Shown here: positions 2,395 through 21,911 of the stretch, piece after piece
How the letters are laid out: every line of letters begins with the position of its first letter
Position numbering within the stretch: position 1 is the first letter of the stretch
DNA from: Blautia faecicola
GTDB lineage: Bacteria; Bacillota; Clostridia; Lachnospirales; Lachnospiraceae
Length of the DNA: 64,000 nt
Direction: 5' to 3'
NCBI RefSeq assembly: GCF_004123145.1
Contig: NZ_SDKC01000001.1
Span: forward strand, 2,389,501 to 2,453,500
The notes under the pieces: generated by a model
What the model saw: the letters and a program-made list of their open reading frames with translations, nothing else
Databases searched by the model: none
What the model was told of the DNA's origin: nothing
Program-made: the position numbers and the translations under genes

Positions 2395-2539
2395 GTTACT
2401 GTTCACTCCGTGCCCAGCAACACGCTGCGCGATGCACAGAATTTATGCTAATCGCATAAATTCGCGCGATATGTCTCGGGTTTTCTGTGACCTTCGCTCA
2501 CAAAAAACACCTCGCGGGATATTACCAGTGAACAGTAAC
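2395..2539. repeat. Family A structured repeat, copy A1
   Basis: A 145-bp element with perfect 13-bp ends GTTACTGTTCACT / AGTGAACAGTAAC. Inside are a hairpin AATTTATGC/GCATAAATT, the constant block TCTCGGGTTTT, a second hairpin around GTGA/TCAC, and the constant block ACACCTCGCGGGAT. It begins two bases past the permease stop codon (stop at 2542-2544). Related copies are at 14671 and 21770. No reading frame is evident. Confidence 0.85.
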
Positions 2540-2541
2540 TA

Positions 2542-3393
2542 TTATTTTACTGCGCCGTTTACTACACCGTTGATAATCTGTTTCTGGCAGATCAGATAGA
2601 AGATCAGGATCGGCAGCAACGCCAGCAGATAAGAGGCGAATGCCAGGTTATAATTAGTTCCGAACTGAGTCTGGAAGTTTAACTGCGCCAGTGGTAACGT
2701 ATTTTTTCCTGTTCCGGACATGATAACCAGCGGAGTCATGACATCGTTCCAGGTACTCATCGCAGTCAGTACCGCAACGGTCGCATGCATCGGTTTCATG
2801 ATCGGGAAAATAATGTTCCAGTAAGTGCTCCAGGTGGTAGCTCCGTCCACACGGGCTGCCTCTTCAAGCGCCAGCGGGATATTCTTCAGATAACCGGAAT
2901 ATAACAGAATATTCATCGGCATAAAGAATACCACATACAGTACGATCACACCAACACGGTTGGCGATTCCAAGCTGTGCCGTCTGTTTTACCAGCGGCAT
3001 CATCAGGATCGCAAACGGAACAAACATACCGCTTACAATATACAGATATGCAAAATTATAAAACTTTTTATTTGCCATGCTTCTTCCGATCGCATATCCT
3101 GCCAGAGAATGGATCAGGATAGCGAGGATCACGGTCACGATCGTAAGCAGTAAACTGTTTCCCAGAGAATGCCAGAAATCGGTTACTTTCATCGCTTCCG
3201 CAAAGTTTGCAAAACTCCAGGTTTTCGGAAATGCAAGTGCTCCCGCGATATCGTTTGTCATCTCAGACGGCTGTTTGAACGCAATGATCACTGCCATATA
3301 CAGAGGGAAAAACACAGTGAGGCAGCCGATGATCAGTAAAATAGTAATCGGCCAGTTAACTTTTGCTGTCTGATTATTTGTTTTCTTACTCAT
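2542..3393 (-). CDS. Carbohydrate ABC transporter permease (MalG type)
   Basis: A 283-residue inner-membrane protein with about six helices, the second permease of a CUT1 sugar importer. The cytoplasmic EAA loop that docks the ATPase reads EEAARVDGATTW (about residues 177-188), followed by the usual IIFPIMKP. Its start codon overlaps the stop of the MalF-type permease by one base (TAATG), implying translational coupling. No ATPase gene lies in this operon; such importers in Firmicutes usually share an MsmX-type ATPase encoded elsewhere. Substrate unknown, probably an oligosaccharide. Confidence 0.93.
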   Translation of the reverse strand: MSKKTNNQTAKVNWPITILLIIGCLTVFFPLYMAVIIAFKQPSEMTNDIAGALAFPKTWSFANFAEAMKVTDFWHSLGNSLLLTIVTVILAILIHSLAGYAIGRSMANKKFYNFAYLYIVSGMFVPFAILMMPLVKQTAQLGIANRVGVIVLYVVFFMPMNILLYSGYLKNIPLALEEAARVDGATTWSTYWNIIFPIMKPMHATVAVLTAMSTWNDVMTPLVIMSGTGKNTLPLAQLNFQTQFGTNYNLAFASYLLALLPILIFYLICQKQIINGVVNGAVK

Positions 3394-4274
3394 TATAACT
3401 GTTCCTCCTTCTTACCCATTACTGTCATCTGGAATGCAGAGATTGCCACGATAACGACAAAGAACAGAACCGCGTTCGCACTCTGGAAACCAAACTGTCC
3501 GCCACTCATACCGTTCTGGTAGATCAGGTAAGAGATGGACTCTGTACTCTGGGACGGACCACCCTTGGTCAATGCCATGATCTGGTCAAATACCATCAGG
3601 AAGTTCTTCATACACAGCACCATATTAATGGTAAAGAACGGAATGATCAGCGGGAAGGTCAGATCTTTGAATCTTCTCCAACCGGTTGCCCCGTCGATCG
3701 CGCCGGCTTCATAGACATCTTCCGGTACGGTCTGCAGACCGGAAATATAGATAATCGTATTCATCGCGATCGCCTGCCATGCTCCTACAATGACGATACC
3801 GAACCATGCAGTGTTCTCTTTTGCCAAAATACTGGAGCTTAACCATTCGATTCCTGCTGCCTGTCCGGCTGCCGGAAGAATATAAGTAAAGAAGAAACTG
3901 AAAATATAACCGATAACCAGTCCCCCCAGAATATTCGGGATGAAATAGATTCCTCTCATCACGGTTTTGCCCTTGATCTTCGCATTCAGTCCCAGTGCCA
4001 GAAGAAGACTGATGATATTTACGATCACGGTACAAACAATTGCATATTTAAACGTAAACAGATACGATCTTCCCACACGGGCATCCGTAAACAGATCTTT
4101 GTAGTTTCGAAGTCCGACAAAATCATAGCTTCCATATCCCTTGAAGTTTGTAAAACTGTAGATAAAACCTTTGATCAGCGGCAATGTATTAAAGCAGAAA
4201 AACAGTACCAGTACCGGAATGGTAATCAGGAGAAACGTGCGCTCTCTGTCGTTGGTTTTTCCTTTCTTATTCAT
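3393..4274 (-). CDS. Carbohydrate ABC transporter permease (MalF type)
   Basis: A 293-residue six-helix permease, partner of the downstream MalG-type protein. The first helix begins near residue 14 (FLLITIPVLVLFFCFNTLPL). The EAA loop reads EAGAIDGATGWRRFKDLTFP (about residues 188-207). The tail FQMTVMGKKEEQL is typical of CUT1 permeases. It follows the binding-protein gene after 17 bases and overlaps the next gene by one base, so binding protein and permeases form one transcript. Confidence 0.93.
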   Translation of the reverse strand: MNKKGKTNDRERTFLLITIPVLVLFFCFNTLPLIKGFIYSFTNFKGYGSYDFVGLRNYKDLFTDARVGRSYLFTFKYAIVCTVIVNIISLLLALGLNAKIKGKTVMRGIYFIPNILGGLVIGYIFSFFFTYILPAAGQAAGIEWLSSSILAKENTAWFGIVIVGAWQAIAMNTIIYISGLQTVPEDVYEAGAIDGATGWRRFKDLTFPLIIPFFTINMVLCMKNFLMVFDQIMALTKGGPSQSTESISYLIYQNGMSGGQFGFQSANAVLFFVVIVAISAFQMTVMGKKEEQL

Positions 4275-4291
4275 CGTTCTTATCCCCTTTC

Positions 4292-5590
4292 CTAATTATT
4301 ACTTCCGTTTTCTTTTTCGTAATCCTGTACTTTCTGGATCAGATCACGGTTGTAACGAACCCACTCAGTATCAAATTTTTTCAGGAATTTGTCGGTAGCA
4401 TTGTCGCTGTCATCCAGCAGGTACGTCTGGATCATCGCATCTACAGACATTTCACTCGGATAGTGGTGATCCTGGTAGTCTACCAGTTTTCCCTCGTTGA
4501 TGTAATCTTTCATACCATCCAGCATAGACGGCAGATCAAAATCACCTTTTTTACACGGTACGGCACTCTGATCATCGATGTATGCCTGTACATTTTCATC
4601 TTCCATGAAGAAACGCAGTACCTCATATGCTTCTTCTTTGTGTTTGCAGTTTTTCATAACAGAAAACTGTAAATCATTACCGGAGTTCAGAACATTTTCC
4701 TCTGCATTGTTGCTTGCAGGGAATACGAACGAATCGATATTCATATCCGGATTTACCGATTTGATCTGCGGAACAGCGTAACTTCCGATCACAAACATTG
4801 CAGATTCTCCTTTGGCAAATGCGGTACATGCATCGTTGTATCCGTACGCTGCCGGGTTGTCCTGTGCATATGTCAGAAGTGCTTTTTCTTTCTCTGCCAC
4901 TTCTCTGTAATTATCGGTAAATGTGGTATTGCCTTTGTTTACCTCCGAACACACATCAGACGGAGCCAGATCTACAGCGATCGCATTCCACGGAGCCAGG
5001 CAGGTCCAGGAATCCTTGAATCCGAAGTACAGTGGCTGAATGCCTTCTGCTTCGATCTTCTCACACAGAGCGGTAAATTCATCCCAGGTCGTCGGGATCG
5101 TCCATCCATGTTCCTCAAACATATCTCTATTATAAAGAACACCGGCTGCGTTTGCCATGTACGGCAGTGCATACGTTCCGTCCATCGGTACATATTCCAG
5201 TTCCTTATCGTTCTGCAGATATGCCTCTTTGACATCTGCAAGCCCGTCAAAATCAGAAATATCCATCAACATATCAGAATCAAGGAAATTGGAGTAGTTT
5301 ACATCACCACCGATTCCGATAATATCCGGATAATCCTCACGAATAAATCTGGTTTTCAGAATGGTCATGGCGTCGTTCGGGGAATCGATCACCAGTTCAA
5401 TATTGTCGTGTGTCTCATTGAATTTCTTTTCCAGCTCTTCAAATACATCTACGGCTTCCGGTTTGTACTGAACAACTTCAATCTTTACTTTTCCGTTTGC
5501 TTCCTCTTTTCCACATCCGGAAAGCATGGTTCCAGCTGCCATCACACCAGCCATTCCAAGACAGAGCGCTGCTTTTCCACGTCTTTTCAT
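4292..5590 (-). CDS. Sugar ABC transporter substrate-binding lipoprotein
   Basis: A 432-residue extracytoplasmic solute-binding protein of family 1. Residues 1-25 are a lipoprotein signal peptide ending in the lipobox LSGC, so C26 would be lipidated and hold the protein on the outer face of the membrane. The mature part shows family landmarks: an early EKKFNETHDNIELVI segment and the middle block containing MFEEHGWTIPTTWDEFTAL. It is first in a binding protein-MalF-MalG operon. The sugar is not deducible; the many aromatic residues suit an oligosaccharide. Confidence 0.93.
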   Translation of the reverse strand: MKRRGKAALCLGMAGVMAAGTMLSGCGKEEANGKVKIEVVQYKPEAVDVFEELEKKFNETHDNIELVIDSPNDAMTILKTRFIREDYPDIIGIGGDVNYSNFLDSDMLMDISDFDGLADVKEAYLQNDKELEYVPMDGTYALPYMANAAGVLYNRDMFEEHGWTIPTTWDEFTALCEKIEAEGIQPLYFGFKDSWTCLAPWNAIAVDLAPSDVCSEVNKGNTTFTDNYREVAEKEKALLTYAQDNPAAYGYNDACTAFAKGESAMFVIGSYAVPQIKSVNPDMNIDSFVFPASNNAEENVLNSGNDLQFSVMKNCKHKEEAYEVLRFFMEDENVQAYIDDQSAVPCKKGDFDLPSMLDGMKDYINEGKLVDYQDHHYPSEMSVDAMIQTYLLDDSDNATDKFLKKFDTEWVRYNRDLIQKVQDYEKENGSNN

Positions 5591-5633
5591 TTTCCATAAT
5601 TCCTTTCCTTATTGATCTTATAAACCGTTTTGA

Positions 5634-5662
5634 ATTCTAGTTAGTTTTGTCAGGTTTTGCAA
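5634..5662 (-). promoter_or_regulatory. Candidate sigma-A promoter for the sugar ABC operon
   Basis: On the minus strand TTGCAA (5657-5662), 17 bases, then TAGAAT (5634-5639), 44 bases before the binding-protein start. A second possible pair, TTGGAC-17-TATAGA, lies further upstream near 5710-5740. Beyond these promoters I see no operator or riboswitch in the 5591-5890 stretch, which is AT-rich. Confidence 0.45.
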
Positions 5663-5890
5663 CATGTTTACAAAAACACCAATATTTTATACAATAATTC
5701 TATATGTTTTTTGTGTATTATGTCCAAGAAACATTTTTAACATTCTTTCTTTTTCACGTATAAATTTTTGATTTTTGTATAGAATGTTGATAACAGCGTA
5801 CTTTTTTTGCGTCCTCCGTAGTTTTCCCGGTAATTTCCAGCTTAATTTACTGAAAATAGTTTCATTTTGTTCGATTCAGATACATATTTA

Positions 5891-5918
5891 TTGATTTTTT
5901 TAATAGATAGCTTATAAT
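5891..5918 (+). promoter_or_regulatory. Sigma-A promoter for the BlaI-like gene
   Basis: TTGATT (5891-5896), a 16-base spacer and a perfect TATAAT (5913-5918), about 52 bases before the start codon at 5970. It points away from the sugar ABC operon. Confidence 0.7.
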
Positions 5919-5969
5919 AAAAGCAGTATCATTATTGTTACTTATTAAATTTATGTGAAAGGAGCTTTT

Positions 5970-6344
5970 ATGCAGACACTAACCCGCAAAGAAGAGCAGA
6001 TTATGCAGGCTGTATGGCAGATCGGTCATCCCTGTCTGATCTCAGAGATTCTGAAAAAGGATACCACGCTCAAAAGAAACACCGTAGCACCCGGTATCAT
6101 CACGCTTACCAAAAAAGGATATCTGAAAGTAGATTCCATCGGAAAATCCATGACCCGTACCGGAAGAGCGTATGCACCGATTGTTACCCAGCATGCTTAT
6201 GATGAACAGCAGAAACTGATTCAGTGTGTCGTAGACAGTCAGACAACGAAAGACGGAATTCTGAATTATATTCAGTTACTGATCGACACGAACCAGGCAG
6301 ACGATGCCTTCAGAGCTAATTTAAAAGAAAAGATTGAGAAATAG
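5970..6344 (+). CDS. BlaI/MecI/CopY-family transcriptional repressor
   Basis: A 124-residue winged-helix repressor. The family core is visible: LTRKEEQIMQAVWQIG at the N-terminus, a recognition region around residues 28-50 (TTLKRNTVAPGIITLTKKGYL, quoted loosely from the N-V-A-L type motif) and the polar C-terminal dimerisation helices. The start at 5970 is chosen because AAAGGAG sits six bases upstream; a GTG at 5955 in frame would place that ribosome site inside the gene. No BlaR-type sensor protease is encoded next to it, so it may respond to another signal or to a sensor elsewhere. The target gene is unknown; autoregulation is possible. Confidence 0.85.
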   Translation: MQTLTRKEEQIMQAVWQIGHPCLISEILKKDTTLKRNTVAPGIITLTKKGYLKVDSIGKSMTRTGRAYAPIVTQHAYDEQQKLIQCVVDSQTTKDGILNYIQLLIDTNQADDAFRANLKEKIEK

Positions 6345-6386
6345 CAGTATTTGAGATTTTATGAATGAAGAAATAAACAATAAACC

Positions 6387-6426
6387 AAAAAGAACCGATG
6401 GTTTCTGACGATGCCTTTTATCTGAA
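6387..6426. terminator. Left half of an interrupted bidirectional terminator
   Basis: AAAAAGAACCGATGGTTTCTG at 6387-6407 (21 bases, given here as the arm only by its ends: A-tract at 6387-6391, CTG at 6405-6407) is the 5' arm of a long hairpin. Its complement lies 1.5 kb away at 7933-7954, beyond the inserted IS element. Before insertion it lay between two convergent genes, the BlaI-like gene and the AICAR transformylase gene. Confidence 0.8.
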
Positions 6427-6434
6427 AAGCATAG
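6427..6434. repeat. Left target-site duplication of the IS element
   Basis: AAGCATAG directly precedes the left IS end and is repeated exactly at 7925-7932. An 8-bp duplication is the usual size for IS256-family transposition. Confidence 0.9.
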
Positions 6435-6456
6435 GGGAGTATCCCAAAGTTTGTGT

Positions 6457-6502
6457 AAACCTCCAAACTGATGTAAGATAGAATTACTCAGTTTGGAGGT
6501 TT
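6457..6502 (+). promoter_or_regulatory. Hairpin sequestering the transposase ribosome site
   Basis: AAACCTCCAAACTGA (6457-6471) is perfectly complementary to TCAGTTTGGAGGTTT (6488-6502), with a 16-base loop. The 3' arm contains the GGAGG ribosome site (6495-6499) of the transposase. Transcripts entering from outside the element would fold this 15-bp stem and hide the site, whereas a transcript starting inside the loop would not. Confidence 0.8.
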
Positions 6503-6507
6503 ATTTT

Positions 6508-7755
6508 ATGGCAAGAAAAAAGGATTCACCACAAAAAGCAGCACTTAGAGAACTCATGGGAAACTACCTGAAAGAAAACAATGTAAAAGTAAAAGATGGA
6601 ACAGATGTTAATTCCATTATGCGGGATATGATGTCTATCATTTTGGAAGGTGCCCTTGATCAGGAACTGGATGAAGAACTGGGATATTCCAAGTATGATT
6701 ATCGAAATAAAGAAACCGATAATTCCAGGAATGGATATTCCCAGAAAACGTTACATACCAGTTACGGAGATATGGAGATTGATATTCCAAGGGATCGAAA
6801 AGGTGACTTCGAACCACAGGTTGTAAAGAAGTATCAGAATTCGATTACGCAGGACATGGAAGAAAAGATCATTTCCATGTACGCAAAAGGAATGACTACT
6901 GCCGATATAGAAAGCCACATGCGTGAATTATACGATCTTGAGATCTCCGACAGTACTGTCAGCCGGATTACTGATAAGATCCTGCCAATAGTAAAAGAAT
7001 GGCAGGAAAGGCCATTAGAAAGTGTGTATGCTGTTGTATTTATGGATGCGATCCATTTCCATGCCCGTAATGAGGGGCGGATTGTAAAACGTGCTGTTTA
7101 CATTGCGATTGGGATCGATATGGAAGGACGTAAGGATGTCCTCGGGATGTATGTGGGTCAAAATGAAAGTGCCAAGTTCTGGCTCTCCATCCTGAATGGT
7201 CTGAAAAACCGGGGCGTAGAAGATATATTGATTGCGTGTGTGGATGGACTGACCGGTTTTCCACAGGCAATTGAAGCAGTATTTCCCCAGACCGAGATCC
7301 AGCAGTGCATCATCCATCAGATCAGGAACACCACGAAATTTGTTTCTTACAAAGAGATCAAACCACTTATGGCAGATCTGAAGCGTGTATATGCAGCTCC
7401 TACAGAAGAAGTTGCATTGGCAGAACTGGACAGCTTTGACGAAAAATGGAGCGGGAAATACCCTAAGATTGCAAAGTCATGGAAAGATAACTGGGCAAAT
7501 CTTTCAACGTATTTTAAGTATCCGGAAGCTGTCAGACGTCTGATCTATACCACGAACACGATTGAAGGATTTAACCGCCAGCTCCGGAAAGTCACCAAAT
7601 CCAAGACGGTATTTCCATCCGATGACAGTCTCTTGAAAATGCTGTATCTGGCCATGATAGATATCACCAAGAAATGGACGGGACACCGTCAGGATTGGGG
7701 ACAGATCCATTCTCAGCTGGAAATTTTCTTCGAAGAAAGATTGGAAAGGTTATAA
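6508..7755 (+). CDS. IS256-family transposase
   Basis: A 415-residue DDE transposase of the mutator/IS256 type, which cuts and joins the ends of its own element. Visible landmarks are the first catalytic aspartate region VVFMDAIHFHARN, the second VDGLTGFPQAIEAVFP followed by QQCIIHQIRN, and the C-terminal YTTNTIEGFNRQLRKVTK carrying the catalytic glutamate. The start at 6508 is chosen because GGAGG at 6495-6499 is correctly spaced; a TTG at 6493 in frame would overlap that site. Full length for the family, no frameshift. Confidence 0.95.
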   Translation: MARKKDSPQKAALRELMGNYLKENNVKVKDGTDVNSIMRDMMSIILEGALDQELDEELGYSKYDYRNKETDNSRNGYSQKTLHTSYGDMEIDIPRDRKGDFEPQVVKKYQNSITQDMEEKIISMYAKGMTTADIESHMRELYDLEISDSTVSRITDKILPIVKEWQERPLESVYAVVFMDAIHFHARNEGRIVKRAVYIAIGIDMEGRKDVLGMYVGQNESAKFWLSILNGLKNRGVEDILIACVDGLTGFPQAIEAVFPQTEIQQCIIHQIRNTTKFVSYKEIKPLMADLKRVYAAPTEEVALAELDSFDEKWSGKYPKIAKSWKDNWANLSTYFKYPEAVRRLIYTTNTIEGFNRQLRKVTKSKTVFPSDDSLLKMLYLAMIDITKKWTGHRQDWGQIHSQLEIFFEERLERL

Positions 7756-7762
7756 GCAGAAT

Positions 7763-7863
7763 GCATGCTAGGCAGGGCTGGCACAGCCAGTCCTGCTTGA
7801 CATGCCTTAAAACTGCATTATAATACAAACAAGGACAGAACCCTGAAAAACAGGTTCTGTCCT
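7763..7863. other. Two hairpins in the 3' end of the IS element
   Basis: At 7763-7805 GCATG...CATGC encloses GCAGG-CTGGC / GCCAG-CCTGC. At 7832-7863 AGGACAGAAC pairs with GTTCTGTCCT. Neither is followed by a long T-run; they may block read-through or protect the transcript end. The rest of 7756-7924 shows nothing else. Confidence 0.6.
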
Positions 7864-7924
7864 CGATAACTAATGACATATCTTATATCAGTTTTTCTGT
7901 TTACACAAAACTTGAAACGCTCTC

Positions 7925-7932
7925 AAGCATAG
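7925..7932. repeat. Right target-site duplication of the IS element
   Basis: AAGCATAG, identical to 6427-6434, immediately after the right inverted repeat. Confidence 0.9.
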
Positions 7933-7954
7933 CAGAAATCATCGGTTCTTTTTT
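7933..7954. terminator. Right half of the interrupted bidirectional terminator
   Basis: CAGAAATCATCGGTTC followed by a six-T run is complementary to 6387-6407 with one G-U pair. It is 14 bases from the AICAR transformylase stop codon. With the IS present the two arms are separated by 1.5 kb, so termination of both neighbouring genes is probably altered. Confidence 0.8.
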
Positions 7955-7967
7955 ACTCTATCTGTTT

Positions 7968-9152
7968 TTAGTGATGGAACAGACGGATACCGGTAAATGC
8001 CATTACCATGTTGTATTTATCACAGCATTCGATCACCAGATCATCGCGGACAGATCCGCCCGGCTGTGCAATGTAGGTAACACCGCTCTTGTGCGCGCGC
8101 TCAATGTTATCTGCAAACGGGAAGAATGCATCGGATCCCAGTGTAACATCTGTCAGCTGATCCAGCCATGCACGTTTTTCTTCTCTTGTAAATACTGCCG
8201 GTTTCTCGGTAAAGGATCTCTCCCAGTTACCGTCACCAATGACATCCATGTATTCCTCACCCATATATACATCAATCGCATTATCTCGTTCTGCACGGGT
8301 GATACCCTCCTTGAATGGAAGGTTCAGTACCTGCGGACTCTGACGCAGCCACCAGTTGTCTGCTTTCTGTCCTGCCAGACGGGTACAGTGTACACGGGAC
8401 TGCTGTCCTGCACCTACACCGATTGCCTGTCCGCCTTTTACGAAACATACGGAGTTGGACTGAGTATATTTGAGGATGATCAGAGAAATCTTCATATCTC
8501 TCTTGGCTTCTTCTGTCAGTTCTTTGTTTTTGGTCACCAGATTGGAGATCAGCTCATCATCGATTGCCAGTTCCTGTCTGCCCTGTTCGAAGGTAACACC
8601 GAACACTTCTTTATGTTCCAGCGGAGCCGGTACATAATCCGGATCGATCTGGATCACGTTATAATTTCCTTTTTTCTTCTGTGCCAGAATCTCGAGTGCT
8701 TCCGGTGTATATCCCGGTGCGATCACGCCATCGGATACCTCTCTCTTGATCAGCATCGCGGTATCTTTGTCACACACATCTGACAGAGAAATAAAATCTC
8801 CGAAAGAAGACATACGGTCCGCGCCTCTTGCTCTCGCATAAGCACAGGCGATCGGAGAGAAGTTTTTCCAGTCCATATCGTCTACCCAGTAGATTTTTGC
8901 CAGTGTCTCGCTTAACGGAAGACCTACTGCTGCACCTGCCGGAGATACGTGTTTGAAAGAAGTTGCTGCCGGAAGTCCGGTTGCCTGTTTCAGGTTGGAT
9001 ACCAGCTGCCATCCGTTAAAAGCATCCAGGAAGTTGATATATCCAGGTTTTCCGGAAAGCACTTTGATTGGAAGCTCTGATCCGTCGTTCATGTAGATTC
9101 TGGAAGGTTTCTGATTTGGGTTACATCCATACTTTAACTGTAATTCTTTCAT
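7968..9152 (-). CDS. purH: Phosphoribosylaminoimidazolecarboxamide (AICAR) formyltransferase
   Basis: A 394-residue stand-alone AICAR transformylase that moves a formyl group from 10-formyltetrahydrofolate to AICAR, giving FAICAR, the penultimate step of IMP synthesis. The catalytic Lys-His pair lies in SFKHVSPAGAAVG (about residues 66-78), and the nucleotide-binding TQSNSVCFVKGGQAIGVGAGQQSR-type region near 230-255 is intact. The usual N-terminal IMP cyclohydrolase domain of bifunctional PurH is missing; that activity is encoded by the gene 16 bases upstream. This split is common in Lachnospiraceae. The pair is preceded by a ZTP riboswitch. Confidence 0.93.
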   Translation of the reverse strand: MKELQLKYGCNPNQKPSRIYMNDGSELPIKVLSGKPGYINFLDAFNGWQLVSNLKQATGLPAATSFKHVSPAGAAVGLPLSETLAKIYWVDDMDWKNFSPIACAYARARGADRMSSFGDFISLSDVCDKDTAMLIKREVSDGVIAPGYTPEALEILAQKKKGNYNVIQIDPDYVPAPLEHKEVFGVTFEQGRQELAIDDELISNLVTKNKELTEEAKRDMKISLIILKYTQSNSVCFVKGGQAIGVGAGQQSRVHCTRLAGQKADNWWLRQSPQVLNLPFKEGITRAERDNAIDVYMGEEYMDVIGDGNWERSFTEKPAVFTREEKRAWLDQLTDVTLGSDAFFPFADNIERAHKSGVTYIAQPGGSVRDDLVIECCDKYNMVMAFTGIRLFHH

Positions 9153-9168
9153 TTTGCTTCTCCCTCTC

Positions 9169-10011: not shown

Positions 10012-10115
10012 ACGAAAAAAGCCTACAATCCGAGCTACACTGCCCAGACGGTCGGCTTCAAACCCTTATACTCCCCGTGGTAAACTCCACTTCCGTCAGT
10101 CATATAAGTTACTTC
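10012..10115 (-). ncRNA. ZTP (pfl) riboswitch with terminator
   Basis: The minus-strand leader carries the pfl motif landmarks: GACTGACGGAAGTGG, then ACCACGGGGAG, a short linker, and GCCGACCGTCTGGGCAG, matching the family pattern (ACUGGCG, ACCGGGAG, CCGCCUGGGCA). It is followed by a stem closing on GTAGGC and the run CTTTTTT at 10012-10021, a terminator overlapping the 3' aptamer half. ZTP binding would favour read-through into the IMP cyclohydrolase and AICAR transformylase genes, whose block causes ZTP to build up. Placement in front of purH is classical for this RNA. Confidence 0.88.
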
Positions 10116-14631: not shown

Positions 14632-14640
14632 TATCTTTTT

Positions 14641-14654: not shown

Positions 14655-14670
14655 TTTTTGTTGTTTATCA

Positions 14671-14813
14671 GTTACTGTTCACTCCGTTTACAGTAACACG
14701 CTTCGCGATGCACAGAAATCATGCTTTGCATGATTTCGCGCCGCAACTCTCGGGTTTTCTGTGAACTTTGTTCACAAAAAACACCTCGCGGAATGTTACC
14801 AGTGAACAGTAAC
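14671..14813. repeat. Family A structured repeat, copy A2
   Basis: A 143-bp element with the same perfect 13-bp ends as A1 (GTTACTGTTCACT / AGTGAACAGTAAC). Inner hairpin 1 is AAATCATGC/GCATGATTT and hairpin 2 is TGTGAAC/GTTCACA, both different in sequence from A1 but still paired. Constant blocks CTCGGGTTTT and ACACCTCGCGG are kept. It lies between the radical SAM promoter and the hppA terminator. Confidence 0.88.
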
Positions 14814-14881
14814 GTTTATCATTCTTTCCACCGAACCAACAAAACTTGCCACTGACAGATCCTTTCCAATGCCATGCAACC

Positions 14882-14933: not shown

Positions 14934-14945
14934 CTTTTACGCTTA

Positions 14946-17072
14946 TTAATGAATCAATGTAATCGTAGAGAACAACGATGCCAAGGTATTGGCAACTGTG
15001 GACATACTCTTGATAAAGATATCCAGTGCCACGCCGACAACGTCTTTTCTTGTATCACCAACGGTATCACCGGTAACTGCTGCTTTGTGAGCGGCTGAGC
15101 CTTTTCCATGTCCTTCCAGCGCTTCGCTCTCGATGTATTTTTTCGCATTGTCGAAAGCTCCACCGGAGTTACCCATAAACAGTGCTCGCGGAATCGCCAC
15201 GATCGTAGCACCGATCAGGATACCGCCTACAAACTGTACACCAAAGATAAATCCGCCGATGACCGGGATGCAAAGTGCCAGTACGGATGGAACAACCATT
15301 TTCTTCAATGCCTGGTTTGCAGCCATACCGATCAGTTTGTTATAATCCGGTTTTACCTTTCCTTCCAGAACACCAGGAGTAGAAAGCATCTTATCACCCT
15401 CGTCTGCCATCAGTTTGGCTGACTCGATGGTGTTATCGGTAAGCATTGCGGAGAAATACTCGATCAGTGCGCCACCGATCAGACCGCCCGCAACCACGAT
15501 GAAGGATGCGATATTCAATACCGGCTCTTCTCCTTTTGCTGTATAGTTTCCTACATAAGCCACGATCAGGGAAACTGCTGCAAATGCCGCAGAACCGATA
15601 GCAAATCCTTTTCCGATCGCCGCTGTCGTATTTCCTACTGAATCCAGCTTGTCCGTGATGATACGTACTTTATGTTCCAGATGACAGGACTCTGCCAGTC
15701 CACCGGCATTGTCTGCGATCGGTCCGAAGGCATCGATGGAAACCGTTGCTCCCACGAACGAAAGCATACCCAGTGCGGAAATCGCGATTCCATACGTTCC
15801 GCTGATCTTACCGGAGATAAACAGTGCGATACCGATGATTAGAATCGGCAGCAAGGTAGAACGGGATCCGATCGCATCACCTTTTGTGATAACGAAAGCC
15901 TCACCCTCGATTGCCATCTCTGCGAGCTTTTTCGTCGGTTTGTATTTGTCACTGGTATAATATTCTGTAATACTTCCGATTGCAATTCCGCTGACGATAC
16001 CGAGGATACTTGAAATCCATGGAGATATCCATCCACAGACCATATCTTCATATAACGGAACATTTCCAAACATCATATACGAAGCAGCCAGCCCCAGAAC
16101 AACCGTAATTCCTGCTGAAATCCAGGTGGCAAGATTCAGTTCTCTTGACGGATCATCTCCCATCTTCCGCACAAATGCGTAGCTCAGACCGATCAGACAT
16201 CCAATCAGGCCGGCACCGGCAAGAATCACCGGGAAAATGATCATACGGACAAATGTTTCATCCGATACATTCACGATTCCATTGATAAATAACGTAACTG
16301 CAATCATGATGGAAGCTGCAATGGTTGCCACGAAGCTTTCCAGAAGGTCAGAACAGTTACCTGCGATATCGTTGACATTATCTCCGATAAAGTCTGCAAT
16401 AACATTTGGCACACGACTGTCATCCTCCGGCATATCATGGCGAATCTTGGCAAGAATATCCGATGAAATGTCTGCCGCCTTCGTGTAGTTACCACCTGCA
16501 ACCCTGTTGAACATGGCTACGATTGAACATCCCAGAGAGTATGTAGTGATTCTCATGATGGAAGGATTGCACTCCAGATTTGCCACCAGTCCGTGACCTG
16601 TCGCGTGTGGATCTACACCCCAGATGATCAACACCAGTAACAGTCCCAGCATACCAAATGCCTGTACCGCAATACCGCTGACACTTCCACCACTCAATGC
16701 TACTTTTACAGTCTCTCCGATGGAAAGTGACTCTCTTGCCTTGTTTGCAGTACGTACATTGGCATAGGTCGCACTCTTCATACCAATGATACAAACCAGA
16801 CTGCTCATCAGCCCGCCAAGCAGAAATGTGATTCCACTTGTGGCTTCCACAAATAAACTGAATACCAGAGCAATGATAACACCAATAATTGCGATTACCT
16901 TAAACTCTGCTTTCAGAAATGTACCCGCACCACTTCGAATGATACCGGCCATCTCTATCATCTCGTCGGTTCCTTCTTTCAGTTTCTTCACTTTGTTGAA
17001 GTTGAAAAGGACAAAAACGAGAGCAACTACTACGACAGCTAACACTGCGTACCAAAAAACGGAACTATCCAT
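14946..17072 (-). CDS. hppA: Membrane-bound ion-pumping pyrophosphatase
   Basis: A 708-residue, roughly 16-helix inner-membrane protein that hydrolyses pyrophosphate and pumps H+ or Na+. Active-site landmarks near residues 198-240 (KAADISSDILAKI, PEDD, IADFIGDNVNDIAG) and a later DAFGPIADNAGG block are present. The usual DVGADLVGKVE signature is altered to DISSDILAKIR. The VGNTTAAIGKG segment has alanine where K+-independent enzymes have lysine, so a K+-dependent enzyme is expected. The start at 17072 fits GGGGGTGGAG just upstream. It neighbours two other pyrophosphate enzymes. Which ion is pumped is not decided here. Confidence 0.92.
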   Translation of the reverse strand: MDSSVFWYAVLAVVVVALVFVLFNFNKVKKLKEGTDEMIEMAGIIRSGAGTFLKAEFKVIAIIGVIIALVFSLFVEATSGITFLLGGLMSSLVCIIGMKSATYANVRTANKARESLSIGETVKVALSGGSVSGIAVQAFGMLGLLLVLIIWGVDPHATGHGLVANLECNPSIMRITTYSLGCSIVAMFNRVAGGNYTKAADISSDILAKIRHDMPEDDSRVPNVIADFIGDNVNDIAGNCSDLLESFVATIAASIMIAVTLFINGIVNVSDETFVRMIIFPVILAGAGLIGCLIGLSYAFVRKMGDDPSRELNLATWISAGITVVLGLAASYMMFGNVPLYEDMVCGWISPWISSILGIVSGIAIGSITEYYTSDKYKPTKKLAEMAIEGEAFVITKGDAIGSRSTLLPILIIGIALFISGKISGTYGIAISALGMLSFVGATVSIDAFGPIADNAGGLAESCHLEHKVRIITDKLDSVGNTTAAIGKGFAIGSAAFAAVSLIVAYVGNYTAKGEEPVLNIASFIVVAGGLIGGALIEYFSAMLTDNTIESAKLMADEGDKMLSTPGVLEGKVKPDYNKLIGMAANQALKKMVVPSVLALCIPVIGGFIFGVQFVGGILIGATIVAIPRALFMGNSGGAFDNAKKYIESEALEGHGKGSAAHKAAVTGDTVGDTRKDVVGVALDIFIKSMSTVANTLASLFSTITLIH

Positions 17073-17154
17073 AAGCTCCACCCCCATAAAATATATTTTT
17101 GCAAATTACCGCCTCACCCGGTAACGATTGCCCCAAATAACTTTATATTTTATA

Positions 17155-17183
17155 AAAATAAAGACTCTTTCCACCCCTGTAAA
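17155..17183 (-). promoter_or_regulatory. Candidate promoter of hppA
   Basis: Minus strand TTTACA (17178-17183), 17 bases, TATTTT (17155-17160). The leader then contains a small hairpin TTACCG/CGGTAA (17106-17124) before the ribosome site. The remaining 17184-17414 is very T-rich on the plus strand and shows no gene or clear site. Confidence 0.5.
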
Positions 17184-17414
17184 TCGCCTTTATTTTCATG
17201 AATCGACCTTCTTCCCACTTTAGCATCATAGTATCATACATTTTTCTATTTTACAAGATTTTTTCTCTGTATTTTCATCTATTTTGTATATCATTTTCCT
17301 TTTCTTCCTTTTATCTCATTGCCATTTTGCATAATTTTTATTATATATTTACAGTTTTCTTCTTATTATTTTCACAACTTATTATTTCGCTTTTATTATT
17401 TTTTATCATCACGC

Positions 17415-17457
17415 AAAAAAGACCCCGTGGCCTGAATCACTTCAGACCTTCGGGGTC
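17415..17457 (-). terminator. Terminator of ppdK
   Basis: Minus-strand hairpin GACCCCG / CGGGGTC with a long inner stem AGGTCTGAAG/TTCAGGCC, followed by TTTTTTG. It ends 56 bases after the ppdK stop. Confidence 0.88.
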
Positions 17458-17512
17458 AATCTTTACGTTTGGACACAATTCATGTTTTCACATGACTTTA
17501 TATAATTTGAAA

Positions 17513-20140
17513 TTATTTCTGGTTGATTGCTGCCTGAGCTGCTGCCAGTCTTGCGATCGGCACACGGAACGGTGAGCAGGAAACATAGTCCAGACCCAGT
17601 TTGTTGCAGAATTCTACAGAACTTGGATCTCCACCGTGTTCTCCACAGATACCTACATGCAGGCTTGGATTAACCGGTTTTCCTAATTTCAGAGCCATAT
17701 CCATCAGTTTGCCAACACCTACCTGATCCAGTTTTGCAAATGGATCGTTTTCGAAGATCTTAGCATCATAGTAAGCATCCAGGAATTTACCGGCGTCATC
17801 ACGGGAGAAGCCGTATGTCATCTGTGTCAGGTCGTTTGTACCGAAGCAGAAGAAGTCAGCTTCTTTAGCGATCTCGTCTGCAGTCAGAGCTGCTCTCGGG
17901 ATCTCGATCATGGTACCAACTTCATATGTCAGGTCGCTGCCAGCTGCTGCGATTTCTGCATCTGCTGTCTCAACAACGAATTTCTTAACATATTTCAGCT
18001 CTTTGATATCGCCTACCAGCGGAATCATGATTTCCGGTTTTACATTCCAGTCCGGATGAGCTTTCTTAACGTTGATAGCTGCACGGATAACTGCGCTTGT
18101 CTGCATCTTAGCGATTTCCGGATAAGTTACAGCCAGACGGCATCCACGATGACCCATCATCGGGTTGAACTCATGCAGAGAATCGATGATAGCTTTGATC
18201 TGCTCAACAGTTTTACCCTGAGCATCAGCCAGTTTCTTGATATCTTCTTCTTCAGTAGGAACGAACTCATGAAGCGGCGGATCCAGGAAACGAATAGTAA
18301 CCGGGTTACCTTCCAGAGCTTCATACAGTTTTTCGAAGTCTCCCTGCTGTTCCGGAAGGATCTTAGCCAGAGCTGCTTCTCTTTCTTCTACTGTTTCAGC
18401 ACAGATCATTTCACGGAATGCATCGATTCTGTTGCCTTCGAAGAACATATGCTCTGTACGGCAAAGACCAATACCTTCTGCACCCAGCTCACGAGCTTTT
18501 TTAGCATCTGCCGGAGTATCTGCATTTGTACGGACTTTCATAGTTCTGTATTTGTCAGCCCATCCCATGATTCTTCCGAATTCACCTGCGATTGTAGCGT
18601 CTACAGTCGGGATGATACCGTCATAGATGTTACCTGTAGAACCATCCAGAGAGATTGCATCTCCTTCATGGTATTCTTTTCCAGCCAGTGTAAATCTCTT
18701 GTTTTCTTCGTCCATTGTGATATCGCCACAACCGGATACACAGCAAGTTCCCATACCACGGGCAACTACTGCTGCGTGGGATGTCATACCACCACGAACT
18801 GTCAGGATACCCTGAGCAGATTTCATACCGGTGATATCTTCCGGAGATGTCTCCAGACGAACCAGAACTACTTTTTCTCCTCTTGCAGCCCATTCTACAG
18901 CGTCATCAGCTGTGAATACGATTTTACCGCAAGCAGCTCCCGGTGAAGCTCCCAGAGCTTTAGCCATTGGAGTAGCAGCTTTCAGAGCAGCTGCATCGAA
19001 CTGCGGATGAAGCAGAGTATCCAGGTTACGAGGATCGATCATAGCTACTGCTTCTTCTTCTGTTCTCATTCCTTCATCTACCAGATCACAAGCGATCTTC
19101 AGAGCAGCCTGAGCTGTTCTCTTACCGTTACGTGTCTGCAGCATGTACAGTTTACCATGTTCTACAGTAAACTCCATATCCTGCATATCTCTGTAGTGAG
19201 TTTCCAGAGTTTTGCAAACTTCTTTGAACTGTTTGAATGCTTCCGGGAACTTCTGTTCCATTTCGGAAATGTGCATAGGTGTACGAACACCGGCAACTAC
19301 GTCTTCACCCTGTGCATTTGTCAGGAATTCACCGAACAGACCGTTATTACCTGTTGCAGGGTCACGTGTGAATGCTACACCGGTACCACAGTCATCACCC
19401 ATGTTACCGAATGCCATCATCTGTACGTTAACTGCTGTTCCCCAGGAATACGGAATATCGTTATCACGACGATATACGTTAGCACGTGGGTTATCCCAAG
19501 AACGGAATACAGCTTTGATAGCGCCCATCAGCTGTTCCTTCGGATCTGTCGGGAATTCAGCTCCGATTTTTTCTTTGTATTCAGCTTTGAACTGGTTAGC
19601 CAGCTCTTTCAGATCTTCTGCTGTCAGTTCAACGTCCTGTTTCACGCCTCTGTCAGCTTTCATTTTGTCGATCAGTTCTTCGAAGTATTTTTTACCTACT
19701 TCCATAACTACGTCAGAGTACATCTGGATAAATCTTCTGTAGCAATCCCATGCCCAACGAGGATTTCCGGAATGAGCAGCCAGAACTTCTACTACTTCTT
19801 CATTCAGACCCAGGTTCAGGATAGTATCCATCATACCAGGCATGGATGCTCTTGCACCAGAACGAACGGAAACCAGAAGAGGATTTTCTTTGTCACCGAA
19901 TTTCTTTCCGGTGATCTCTTCCATTTTTGTGATGGATTCCATGATCTGAGCCATGATTTCATCGTTAATTTTTCTTCCGTCCTCATAGTACTGAGTACAA
20001 GCTTCTGTTGTAATTGTGAAGCCCTGTGGTACCGGCAGTCCTAAGTTTGTCATTTCAGCAAGGTTAGCACCTTTTCCACCCAGAAGGTTTCTCATGGTAG
20101 CATTACCTTCAGTGAACATATAAACCCACTTTGTTGCCAT
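17513..20140 (-). CDS. ppdK: Pyruvate, phosphate dikinase
   Basis: An 875-residue cytoplasmic enzyme interconverting phosphoenolpyruvate, AMP and PPi with pyruvate, ATP and phosphate. The N-terminal ATP-grasp domain opens with KWVYMFTEGNATMRNLLGGK, the swivelling phosphohistidine domain contains GGMTSHAAVVARGMG (catalytic histidine, near residue 455), and the C-terminal PEP/pyruvate barrel includes the CGEHGGDPSS loop with the catalytic cysteine. Full length. In anaerobes it can act as a glycolytic enzyme that makes two ATP-equivalents per pyruvate using PPi. It lies between hppA and the PPi-type phosphofructokinase. Confidence 0.97.
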   Translation of the reverse strand: MATKWVYMFTEGNATMRNLLGGKGANLAEMTNLGLPVPQGFTITTEACTQYYEDGRKINDEIMAQIMESITKMEEITGKKFGDKENPLLVSVRSGARASMPGMMDTILNLGLNEEVVEVLAAHSGNPRWAWDCYRRFIQMYSDVVMEVGKKYFEELIDKMKADRGVKQDVELTAEDLKELANQFKAEYKEKIGAEFPTDPKEQLMGAIKAVFRSWDNPRANVYRRDNDIPYSWGTAVNVQMMAFGNMGDDCGTGVAFTRDPATGNNGLFGEFLTNAQGEDVVAGVRTPMHISEMEQKFPEAFKQFKEVCKTLETHYRDMQDMEFTVEHGKLYMLQTRNGKRTAQAALKIACDLVDEGMRTEEEAVAMIDPRNLDTLLHPQFDAAALKAATPMAKALGASPGAACGKIVFTADDAVEWAARGEKVVLVRLETSPEDITGMKSAQGILTVRGGMTSHAAVVARGMGTCCVSGCGDITMDEENKRFTLAGKEYHEGDAISLDGSTGNIYDGIIPTVDATIAGEFGRIMGWADKYRTMKVRTNADTPADAKKARELGAEGIGLCRTEHMFFEGNRIDAFREMICAETVEEREAALAKILPEQQGDFEKLYEALEGNPVTIRFLDPPLHEFVPTEEEDIKKLADAQGKTVEQIKAIIDSLHEFNPMMGHRGCRLAVTYPEIAKMQTSAVIRAAINVKKAHPDWNVKPEIMIPLVGDIKELKYVKKFVVETADAEIAAAGSDLTYEVGTMIEIPRAALTADEIAKEADFFCFGTNDLTQMTYGFSRDDAGKFLDAYYDAKIFENDPFAKLDQVGVGKLMDMALKLGKPVNPSLHVGICGEHGGDPSSVEFCNKLGLDYVSCSPFRVPIARLAAAQAAINQK

Positions 20141-20238
20141 TTAAACATTCCTCCTAAAAGTATATTAAATTTCCAAACATTTCCCACCAGGAAAAGCGGA
20201 AAACATTTTACTCATGCAGTTCGCACTCGTATATAATA

Positions 20239-20267
20239 ATTGTAATCAAAAAGCACATTATAGTCAA
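20239..20267 (-). promoter_or_regulatory. Sigma-A promoter of ppdK
   Basis: Minus strand TTGACT (20262-20267), 17 bases, TACAAT (20239-20244), about 100 bases before the start codon. No convincing terminator separates it from the phosphofructokinase gene upstream, so read-through is also possible. Confidence 0.65.
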
Positions 20268-20335
20268 GTCAAACCGAAGAAAAAAAGGAAAAATACGTTA
20301 AAAATCCTTCTTATTTTTACATGAATTTCGGCACA

Positions 20336-21586
20336 TTATTTCTTTTTCATGTCCAGAACCAGATGGCGTGGCAGACCATTTACCATAATTGGCTGATAAT
20401 CGCCCTGGATCAGCGGTTTTACATAGTCAATAAAGTCTTTTGTTACATAATTGCCTTCTTTATTTACCCATTCTCTCGGAACCAGTTTTTCTTCATTGGC
20501 GATCCGGTGTACATCGTAGATTCCCGCGGATGACATGTACGGATCATCGGATACCCGGTCGATAACCACCATGTTTCCGTTATAGCCTTCGTCTGCTGCT
20601 TTCACTGCGGCACCACCTACCATAAATGCTTCTTCGATATCTACTCTGGATGCCATATGAGAAGCACTTCTTTGCAGTGTTGAGAATTCTACGCTACGAG
20701 TCTTGCATCCGATCTCTGCGCCCAGGAATCCGGCAAGATAAGCTGCTGTACCCTGTAACTGTTTGTGTCCGAATGCGTCTACATAATCTCCGCCACCGGA
20801 CAGTTCGCATACATACCGTCCGTCTGCCAGTTTGATTCCTTCTGAAACTGCAATTACAATAGAGCTCTTCTTCTGCAGCAGTTCTTTTACTTTTGCCAGG
20901 AAATCGTCTACATCAAAAGCGATCTCCGGAAGATAGATCAGATCCGGTCCTTCACATTCCTCTGTTTTAGCAAGCGCTGCAGCTCCGGTAAGCCATCCCG
21001 CATTTCTTCCCATGATTTCCATAACGGTGATCATTTCTTTTTTGTATGTCAGTCCAAGTGCATCACGGATTACTTCTTTTGTGGAAGCCGCAATGTATTT
21101 TGCCGCACTTCCAAACCCAGGTGTATGATCCGTCAGAGCCAGGTCGTTATCAATTGTTTTCGGCACACCGAGAAACTTTTGTTTATGTCCTTTTACGATG
21201 GCATAGTCGGAAAGTTTACGGATGGTATCCATGGAGTCGTTTCCTCCGATATATATAAAGGAATCAATCTCCAGCTTGTCCAGAATCTCAAAAATCCTGT
21301 CATATATCTCCATGTTTTCATGAATTTCCGGGAGTTTATAACGACAGGATCCCAAAAAAGCGGACGGGGTTCTCTTTAACAGTTCAATATCCAGATCCGA
21401 ATGGATCTGTGTGGACATATCCACATATTGTTCATCTAAAAGTCCCTGAACACCATGCAGCATACCATATACTTTGTCAAATCCTCTCTCAATTGCATTT
21501 TTATACACACCTGCCAAGCTGGAATTGATTACAGATGTCGGACCTCCGGACTGTCCTACGATTACATTTCTTTTTTTGCTGGCCAT
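20336..21586 (-). CDS. 6-phosphofructokinase, probably pyrophosphate-dependent
   Basis: A 416-residue group II-type phosphofructokinase making fructose 1,6-bisphosphate. Two phosphodonor positions point to pyrophosphate: GGND at 114-117 has aspartate where ATP enzymes have glycine (GGDG), and PKTIDND at 142-148 has lysine where ATP enzymes have glycine (PGTIDND). Further landmarks: GQSGGPTSVIN at the N-terminus and MGRNAGWL in the substrate site. The start at 21586 fits AGGAGGAG with nine-base spacing; the ATG at 21592 is too close. The neighbouring ppdK and hppA genes support PPi use. Cofactor choice is inference from residues. Confidence 0.9.
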   Translation of the reverse strand: MASKKRNVIVGQSGGPTSVINSSLAGVYKNAIERGFDKVYGMLHGVQGLLDEQYVDMSTQIHSDLDIELLKRTPSAFLGSCRYKLPEIHENMEIYDRIFEILDKLEIDSFIYIGGNDSMDTIRKLSDYAIVKGHKQKFLGVPKTIDNDLALTDHTPGFGSAAKYIAASTKEVIRDALGLTYKKEMITVMEIMGRNAGWLTGAAALAKTEECEGPDLIYLPEIAFDVDDFLAKVKELLQKKSSIVIAVSEGIKLADGRYVCELSGGGDYVDAFGHKQLQGTAAYLAGFLGAEIGCKTRSVEFSTLQRSASHMASRVDIEEAFMVGGAAVKAADEGYNGNMVVIDRVSDDPYMSSAGIYDVHRIANEEKLVPREWVNKEGNYVTKDFIDYVKPLIQGDYQPIMVNGLPRHLVLDMKKK

Positions 21587-21613
21587 TGGCATCTCCTCCT
21601 ATAAATATTTTGT

Positions 21614-21632
21614 ACGATAATACTATAATCGT
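21614..21632. promoter_or_regulatory. Near-palindrome at the phosphofructokinase start site
   Basis: ACGATAATACTATAATCGT, a 19-bp imperfect palindrome (ACGAT...ATCGT ends), lies directly after the -10 box, about where transcription starts. This is a typical repressor position. It fits no operator I recognise. Confidence 0.4.
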
Positions 21633-21633
21633 C

Positions 21634-21662
21634 ATTATACTAAATTATTATTATTTTTTCAA
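21634..21662 (-). promoter_or_regulatory. Sigma-A promoter of phosphofructokinase
   Basis: Minus strand TTGAAA (21657-21662), 17 bases, perfect TATAAT (21634-21639), 48 bases before the start codon. Confidence 0.75.
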
Positions 21663-21769
21663 TATTTCTTTATGTATATTCACTATTATTATGATTCTCT
21701 CATGTTTTCTTATTGACCTTTTGTATAATACAGGTTATTCTTATACAAGATGTTTATACATTATTTATC

Positions 21770-21911
21770 GTAACTGTTCAGTAACTTCACAGTTACGAGC
21801 AAAAATGCATTGAAAATCACCTTCGGTGATGGCATTTTTGCTTGTATGTCTCGGGATTTTGGCATATTTATGCCAAAACACCTCGCGGGATAATGGCTAC
21901 TGAATAGTTAC
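21770..21911. repeat. Family A structured repeat, copy A3
   Basis: A 142-bp divergent copy. Ends GTAACTGTTCAGTA / TACTGAATAGTTAC pair with one mismatch. Inner hairpins are AATCACC-TTCG-GGTGAT and TTTTGGCATA-TT-TATGCCAAAA, unlike A1/A2 in sequence but equivalent in position. TGTCTCGGG and ACACCTCGCGGGATA are conserved. It lies 63 bases upstream of the metallo-hydrolase start, and between it and the phosphofructokinase promoter (21663-21769) I see only AT-rich sequence. Confidence 0.85.

What the first reader, a model, noticed from the sequence alone, without database searches (positions are those of the whole stretch)
2395..21911. Three-copy family of structured repeats with compensating changes in their hairpins (A1 2395-2539, A2 14671-14813, A3 21770-21911)
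The copies share terminal inverted repeats and constant blocks (TCTCGGG, ACACCTCGCGG), but the arms of both inner hairpins differ: GCATAAATT, GCATGATTT and GGTGAT types in hairpin 1; GTGA/TCAC, GTGAAC/GTTCAC and GGCATA/TATGCC types in hairpin 2. Pairing is preserved each time. Compensating substitution is the mark of selection on RNA or cruciform structure rather than simple decay. All lie between genes, A1 two bases past a stop codon. Size and ends fit a MITE-like element; the covariation suggests a functional RNA.
Basis: partly seen in the sequence, partly recalled or inferred. Interest (0 to 1): 0.75.

Follow-up and report, generated by a model that had tools for sequence, protein, structure and literature searches.

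The report
Jumping DNA with folded RNA inside
The three repeats are copies of a small jumping DNA element scattered through the bacterial family Lachnospiraceae, whose inside keeps the same set of hairpins while the letters change; the pattern of mismatches suggests that one particular strand, probably as RNA, has to fold.

Summary
A1-A3 belong to a large family of 142-145 bp elements: 81 model matches in this genome; of 57 extracted copies over 115 nt, 32 have perfect 8-bp target duplications. A3 has an exact empty site in a sister genome; A2 is absent there, A1 shared. Matches occur in 36 of 396 genomes of the taxonomic family. These are non-autonomous, MITE-like transposons; no partner transposase was found.
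Covariation is real (hairpin 2: 115 of 155 cells paired, shuffled 58.9; hairpin 1: 157 of 171, shuffled 111.9) but does not prove selection, since some arms look copied from the other arm. So the complementary strand probably folds, likely as RNA. Weaknesses: shared ancestry, smaller bias per distinct arm pair (10:4 in hairpin 2), only a trend in recent copies (A.C 15, G.T 7, p 0.13), no transcript seen, role unknown.

The parts
2395..2539 (-). A1, type I element (145 bp); folded strand proposed to be the minus strand
2387..2394 (.). left target-site duplication of A1, TATTATTT
2540..2547 (.). right target-site duplication of A1, TATTATTT; holds the stop codon of ORF 2542-3393(-)
2395..2421 (-). 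A1 hairpin H0 (left terminal repeat and its inner inverted copy)
   Evidence: read; pairing
2434..2467 (-). A1 hairpin H1
   Evidence: read
2475..2514 (-). A1 hairpin H2, from CTCG to CTCG on plus (CGAG and CGAG on minus)
   Evidence: read
14671..14813 (-). A2, type I element (143 bp); absent from sister genome G002
14663..14670 (.). left duplication of A2, GTTTATCA
14814..14821 (.). right duplication of A2, GTTTATCA
14671..14697 (-). A2 hairpin H0
   Evidence: read
14710..14741 (-). A2 hairpin H1
   Evidence: read
14749..14788 (-). A2 hairpin H2
   Evidence: read
21770..21911 (-). A3, type II element (142 bp); exact empty site in sister genome G002
21762..21769 (.). left duplication of A3, TATTTATC
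21912..21919 (.). right duplication of A3, TATTTATC
21770..21796 (-). A3 hairpin H0
   Evidence: read
21794..21846 (-). A3 hairpin H1, type II form
   Evidence: read
21850..21885 (-). A3 hairpin H2
   Evidence: read

Best explanation
A1-A3 are non-autonomous DNA transposons of a modular, MITE-like family spread over Lachnospiraceae. SHOWN: imperfect terminal repeats (GTWACTGTTCAS type), 8-bp target duplications, an exact empty site for A3, many dispersed copies, patchy occurrence. SHOWN: an interior of three hairpins (H0 next to the left end, H1, H2) whose arms vary with pairing mostly kept. INFERRED: a transposase supplied in trans, not found here, acts on the terminal repeats as duplex DNA; the interior is transcribed by read-through and folds as RNA; selection on that fold, helped by template switching that copies one arm onto the other, keeps the hairpins. 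My guess for its role is recognition by, or control of, the mobilising machinery, because the H0 stem is made of the element's own end sequence; this last step is weak.
For: Duplications: 32 of 57 elements over 115 nt are 8/8 and 38 of 57 at least 7/8, against a mean of 0.8 (maximum 5 in 1000 rounds) when flanks are re-paired. Empty site of A3 with one TATTTATC in G002. Matches at E 1e-8 in the five genomes of the genus: 56, 2, 78 (all 78 that were scored), 4, 2. Hairpin 2: 31 distinct arm pairs, 115 of 155 cells Watson-Crick, shuffled mean 58.9 sd 5.5; hairpin 1 (type I form): 19 arm pairs, 157 of 171, shuffled 111.9 sd 4.1. Strand, majority pair per cluster and position over 30 clusters (127 elements): H0 A.C 30, G.T 5; H2 17 and 1; H1 type I form (20 clusters) 20 and 0, all at one position; H1 type II form (4 clusters) 2 and 0; terminal stem 6 and 8. 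H0+H2 against terminal stem: Fisher p 0.0008. Fourteen further elements (of 29 loci): inside A.C 13, G.T 1; terminal stem 3 and 7; Fisher p 0.002. RNA folding: minus strand more stable by over 1 kcal/mol in 20 of 30 clusters, plus in 6.
Against: No partner transposase found. The clusters share ancestry, so cells are not independent and the p values are too small; 8 of the 30 H0 A.C cells are position 4 and 10 of the 17 in H2 are the apical pair, where a fixed A on one side would by itself give A.C. Counted per distinct arm pair the bias is smaller: H2 A.C 10, G.T 4; H1 5 and 1. In the terminal stem, counted per distinct end combination, the tilt is the other way, G.T 34, A.C 17. In 28 type II copies of this genome, one-sided changes give G.T 7, A.C 15 in H1 and H2 (p 0.13) and 8 and 6 in the terminal stem; two doubtful stems of the plus-strand fold, left out of that, give 1 and 25. 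Type II has plus-strand G.T pairs (28-74 in H1; 79-122 and 82-119 in a doubtful lower stem) and folds better on plus. Folding is far from random on both strands. No transcript was seen. H1 can be missing (116-bp forms L105 with 8/8 and L177 with 7/8 duplication; the two in L130 have none) and the 3' module can be another one. Neighbouring genes show no consistent orientation.
Confidence: 0.6

Rival explanations
1. Ordinary MITE: only the ends matter; interior palindromes are kept by template switching (arm-to-arm copying) and recent common ancestry, with no selection on a fold.
For: Three elements look like arm copying: L084 (164 bp; right H1 arm complementary to the left over the inserted stretch), L116 (left arm replaced by the complement of the right) and G000:1199137-1199272 (the same, with one T.G pair left), the last two with one base more than a simple loss of the bulge would leave, by my reading. 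The mechanism is described in PMC8794818. Recent copies in this genome show no significant strand bias in H1 and H2.
Against: Template switching makes Watson-Crick pairs and gives no reason for A.C 47 and G.T 6 inside against 6 and 8 in the terminal stem, nor for 13:1 against 3:7 in 14 more elements. Blocks around the variable arms persist across genera, though partly by ascertainment.
Confidence: 0.25
2. The minus strand folds as single-stranded DNA (for example at the replication fork or in a transposition intermediate), with H0 offering an extra duplex copy of the end.
For: G.T is also better tolerated than A.C in DNA (general knowledge). In this genome 47 of 62 copies have the minus strand on the leading side, p 6e-5, with a boundary at 1.6 Mb that I chose after seeing the positions; by local skew 40 of 57, p 0.003. 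At sites between genes of opposite direction 18 of 23 do so.
Against: Not general: G002 26 of 40, p 0.08; 13 of 25 at sites not shared with fetched own loci, 13 of 15 at shared ones; 6 of 13 at sites between genes of opposite direction; named loci 49 of 85, p 0.19. Leading-strand shares of 60.8% and 60.9% are printed for BOX and RUP and said to mirror the coding bias (PMC3049150, section 6).
Confidence: 0.15
3. Host-adopted regulatory RNA (terminator, processing site or leader) at fixed genes.
For: Elements lie mostly between genes (2 of 57 own and 8 of 84 named placed inside an ORF by a rough rule); stable hairpins.
Against: 2 to 78 or more matches per genome within one genus, and 36 of 396 genomes in the family; A2 and A3 absent at the same place in the sister genome; gene orientation own ++12 --25 +-6 -+12, named loci ++24 --21 +-15 -+16; Rfam over threshold in the window only tRNA and ZTP.
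Confidence: 0.05
4. Cruciform-forming protein binding site in duplex DNA.
For: Palindromes; terminal repeats.
Against: A cruciform extrudes both strands, so G.T on one is A.C on the other and no bias is expected; bias is seen inside.
Confidence: 0.07

Closest known systems
Prokaryotic MITEs in general (review PMC10969869, passages seen)
   Same: Short, terminal inverted repeats, direct repeats at the site, non-coding, many dispersed copies; the review also says that MITE transcripts form stable stem-loops.
   Different: No partner insertion sequence identified here; the interior keeps a layout and blocks across genera and shows strand-biased mismatches.
BOX, RUP and SPRITE repeats of Streptococcus pneumoniae (PMC3049150, passages and section 6 seen)
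   Same: High copy, strongly folded, modular (BOX), held to be parasitic, about 61-63% on the leading strand.
   Different: Sequences were not compared here. Modules here are exchangeable hairpins rather than runs of boxB units; the duplication is 8 bp.
CIR repeats of Caulobacter and other alphaproteobacteria (PMC2229807, passages seen)
   Same: About 110 bp repeats, abundant, with proposed RNA structures described as phylogenetically conserved, arms joined by a linker.
   Different: Other bacteria, with a GANTC site; not compared by sequence here.
IS66-family ends (GTAA start and 8-bp duplication, recalled)
   Same: 8-bp duplication; type II copies begin GTAA.
   Different: The three near-identical IS66 copies of this genome end in GTAAACGTCAAACC; type I begins GTTAC.

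Membership tests
MITE (non-autonomous DNA transposon) | short | tested here: met
   mostly 142-145 bp; a mobile 233-bp form has an insert of about 90 bp
MITE (non-autonomous DNA transposon) | no protein-coding sequence | not tested
   inferred from size; ORFs inside elements were not examined
MITE (non-autonomous DNA transposon) | terminal inverted repeats | tested here: met
MITE (non-autonomous DNA transposon) | target-site duplication and empty sites | tested here: met
   32 of 57 are 8/8; empty site of A3
MITE (non-autonomous DNA transposon) | ends shared with an autonomous element in the host | tested here: inconclusive
   not found; other transposase families were not searched and pattern lists were cut at 100 places
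IS66-derived element | ends match an IS66 of the genome | tested here: not met
   ends of the fourth, interrupted copy (L061) were only scanned for the end pattern
BOX-like modular repeat | modules that vary in presence and kind | tested here: met
   hybrid copy, 116-bp forms, 233-bp form, alternative 3' module
BOX-like modular repeat | boxA/boxB/boxC sequences | not tested
   no comparison with BOX was made
REP/RAYT (IS200/IS605-like) elements | no target duplication (recalled criterion) | tested here: not met
   8-bp duplications
Described RNA family (Rfam 15) | score over the curated threshold | tested here: not met
   window: only tRNA and ZTP, neither on A1-A3. Five loci at E up to 5: a T-box away from the element in L086; on the L130 element only a His_leader match far below its threshold, E 1.3
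Structured RNA | covariation beyond shuffles | tested here: met
   with the caveats on shared ancestry and template switching
Structured RNA | transcript | not testable with these tools
   no RNA data

The most novel reading that the evidence does not exclude
A bacterial transposon family that is also an RNA family: the ends act as duplex DNA, and the interior is a conserved three-hairpin RNA read from one strand, ending in a hairpin built from the transposon's own end sequence, that takes part in or controls its mobility.
Probability: 0.35. Interest if true: 0.8.

Novelty: new variant of a known kind. Interest (0 to 1): 0.55.

Why it matters
Stable or even conserved folds have been proposed for bacterial MITE transcripts before (BOX, CIR; PMC3049150 and PMC2229807, passages seen), but palindromes alone cannot tell selection on RNA from template switching or cruciforms. 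Here the element's own terminal repeats serve as internal control: inner hairpins mismatch mostly as wobble on one strand, the terminal repeats do not. If that stands up to a tree-based count, 'does a MITE carry a functional RNA?' becomes testable, and the comparison of G.T with A.C mismatches could be applied cheaply to other repeats. The family also gives insertion differences between sister species.

Tried and rejected
Partner transposase. The three near-identical IS66 copies of this genome have other ends. Multi-copy IS256 and DDE_Tnp_1 elements too; of single-copy ones only the end pattern was scanned, and single matches but no pairs were seen. End-repeat pairs 0.3-7 kb apart with duplications: none in L073-L178 (L179-L192 were not in that scan). 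Thirteen regions of this genome around isolated end repeats gave elements and remnants; one 1.75-kb pair (L228) had a 6 of 8 duplication and spans ORFs that I did not identify. Five pairs 2.7-4.4 kb apart in G002 look like elements or remnants, judged by eye from the printed ends only. Only the first 100 places (of 116; of 223) were listed, so pairs further on could be missed.

Partial matches at contig ends in G002 looked like a longer element but are the 233-bp form cut by the contig end.

Phages and plasmids: 0 in the viral collection by exact pattern, no plasmid match for A3 (A1 and A2 not tried), two unannotated faecal 'Bacteriophage sp.' scaffolds for A2 (A1 and A3 not tried), which may be host DNA; not followed.

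Orientation to genes or replication as a sign of function. Gene calls used a rough longest-ORF rule; the two versions (60 and 80 aa) give different counts for this genome (++12 --25 +-6 -+12; ++12 --19 +-18 -+5, 3 without).

RNAalifold consensus on mixed alignments gave only 21 and 27 pairs, so I counted pairs by anchored arms in scripts. The count of structure pairs, fold_alignment and structure prediction were not used.

Rows dropped. One search extracted 62 of the 81 matches: the 18 weakest (E 4.3e-5 to 7e-3) and, by oversight, G000:772034-772198 (E 4.6e-11) were left out; five places were widened to 231-233 bp by hand. One search kept 93 elements with at least 6 of 8 duplication bases from 120 loci. 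One search matched hairpin 2 in 136 of 149 distinct elements. One search used elements over 115 nt or with at least 7 of 8 duplication bases in which its arm pattern was found. Of the 5 G.T cells, 4 come from two clusters where H0 was probably misaligned (own_763174, L093); they were not removed. One search placed ends in 29 loci, several of them wrongly (near contig ends); one search used 14 of 29, chosen after seeing by at least 6 of 8 duplication bases and 6-mer similarity 0.10 to 0.32 to the first element of each discovery cluster. In one search the H2 hairpin was misplaced in at least L302 and L304.

Literature: searched open PMC text; none of the listings shown named this family, and the string GTTACTGTTCAC is in no held paper. 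That is no proof that it is undescribed.
Full report
OBSERVATION. RNA folding is far more stable than shuffles for all three on both strands (z -6.4 to -9.5). Each copy is flanked by a perfect 8-bp direct repeat. A1 and A2 are one subfamily (type I, GTTAC ends, GATGCACAG frame) and A3 another (type II, GTAAC ends).

EXTENT. DNA searches of the window's genome gave 40 matches to A2 at E 1 (70 candidates, 40 scored) and 46 to A3 at E 0.001 (110 candidates, 40 scored). A covariance model from 39 copies gave 81 matches at E 0.01 or better. The exact end pattern occurs 116 times, its reversed control 0 times; in the sister genome G002 223 times against 0. Contig lengths of G002 equal those of Oliverpabstia intestinalis contigs among the named loci (16230, 140097, 204611), so I take G002 for that species (inference). 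A pattern scan of named genomes (stopped at its limit, 120 stretches) found Blautia, Oliverpabstia, Fusicatenibacter, [Clostridium] symbiosum, Clostridium transplantifaecale, Anaerobium, Murimonas, Lachnospira, Hominisplanchenecus and unnamed Lachnospiraceae or Eubacteriales. With a second model, 36 of 396 genomes of the family (own genome included; at least 80% complete), in 32 of 317 genera, have a match at E 1e-6 (8 candidates scored per genome). The earlier search of 41 genomes had 6 with a match.

MOBILITY. Of 57 extracted elements over 115 nt, 32 have 8/8 and 38 at least 7/8 duplications; re-paired flanks give a mean of 0.8, maximum 5. Among the 93 retained named elements 64 have 8/8, 21 have 7/8 and 8 have 6/8, but there the duplication was part of how ends were chosen. 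In G002 the sequence around A3 is uninterrupted, with one TATTTATC; A2 is missing, with diverged flanks; A1 is present with the same duplication. Duplications of 35 own copies are AT-rich (0.75), and GTAAC-ended copies prefer C as last base (18 of 27 here; 12 of 23 named ones that begin GTA). So these are inserted elements, not decayed local repeats. Remnants of 27-69 bp, some with duplications, fit deletion between H0's right arm and the right end, which are direct repeats (the reading is mine).

Left end; H0, the left end paired with an inner inverted copy; H1; H2 inside CTCGGG(A)TTTT ... AAAACRCCTCGCGG; right end. Modules vary: a hybrid type I/type II copy, 116-bp forms without the H1 arms, a 233-bp form with about 90 bp more in the H1 loop that resembles another repeat of the genome, and a 133-bp Fusicatenibacter form with another 3' module. 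An end-and-duplication scan of the 120 named loci found 92 elements, 83 with the exact core and 9 without (one of these by a single letter); shuffled loci gave 0. Because the loci were chosen by the core, the 83 say little about its conservation. More telling is that divergent elements found by the model keep CTCG..CTCG around quite different arms (L298, L299, L303), though the model itself contains that block.

COVARIATION. Hairpin-2 arms: 31 distinct pairs, 115 of 155 cells Watson-Crick, shuffled 58.9 (sd 5.5, maximum 76 in 2000). Hairpin-1 arms, type I form: 19 pairs, 157 of 171, shuffled 111.9 (sd 4.1, maximum 127). Shuffling does not remove shared ancestry. Three elements look like arm copying in one step (L084, L116, G000:1199137-1199272), the mechanism of PMC8794818. 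So covariation by itself does not separate selection from mutation.

STRAND. If one strand must fold as single strand, wobble pairs are tolerated on it and appear as A.C on the other. Taking the majority pair per cluster and position over 30 clusters (127 elements): H0 A.C 30 and G.T 5; H2 17 and 1; H1 type I form (20 clusters) 20 and 0, one position; H1 type II form (4 clusters) 2 and 0; terminal repeats against each other 6 and 8. Fisher, H0+H2 against the terminal stem, p 0.0008. In 14 further elements: inside 13 and 1, terminal 3 and 7, p 0.002. A strand-neutral helix finder summed over 33 clusters gave A.C 27.3 and G.T 2.9. On the complementary strand CTCG..CTCG reads CGAG..CGAG, which could form a tandem G.A motif (my reading; not computed). 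Against it: clusters share ancestry, so p values are too small; a fixed A opposite T or C would give A.C at some positions by itself; per distinct arm pair the counts are weaker (H2 10 and 4, H1 5 and 1); per distinct end combination the terminal stem tilts the other way (A.C 17, G.T 34) while H0 keeps A.C 61, G.T 11; 28 type II copies of this genome give A.C 15, G.T 7 in H1 and H2 (p 0.13), 6 and 8 in the terminal stem and, over all predicted pairs, 46 and 16; type II has some plus-strand G.T pairs and folds better on plus. Over clusters minus is the more stable strand in 20 of 30 and plus in 6.

WHAT IT DOES. Shown: it has moved since G002 and this genome parted. Suggested: its complementary strand folds. 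Not shown: transcription, and any role. No gene-orientation preference holds across sets. In this genome 47 of 62 copies have the folded strand on the leading side; the sister genome (26 of 40; 13 of 25 at sites not shared, 13 of 15 at shared ones) and named loci (49 of 85) do not confirm a general rule. The partner transposase is unknown.

VERDICT. A real, large, MITE-like family, not met in the literature searches made here, with a strand-biased mismatch signature that favours a folded RNA. New variant of a known kind; interest 0.55.

Noticed in passing
window 10035-10113 (-): ZMP/ZTP riboswitch, 57.9 bits.
   Followed up: no
window 50144-50216 (-): tRNA.
   Followed up: no
window about 6435-7925, ORF 6493-7755 (+): IS256-type insertion sequence of about 1490 bp, with copies 99-100% identical on the chromosome contig and on contigs C2 and C3 of the genome.
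   Followed up: partly
L008 (G000:431910-435041) and L255-L257: A second MITE with ends CTAGAGCGTGTTTGAAAAA seems to interrupt a type I element; a DDE_Tnp_1 insertion sequence of about 885 bp with similar ends is in the genome.
   Followed up: partly
L228 about 1080-1200, L239, and the loop of the 233-bp elements: Another repeat with CGAGCAACGAGTCAAAGTCCGTGCTTGCACG, found alone and as the insert in H1.
   Followed up: no
L061 (G000:3135743-3136603): An IS66-type transposase match with one stop inside; the other three matches have none.
   Followed up: no
L075 413-545, 3143-3275, 7636-7778 and L219: Same kind of ends and layout but another 3' module (ACGGTCT-hairpin-GACC type) in Fusicatenibacter and in genome G017.
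   Followed up: partly
own genome, 62 elements: Orientation follows replichore: first 1.6 Mb 8 plus and 23 minus, rest 24 plus and 7 minus; not confirmed elsewhere.
   Followed up: partly
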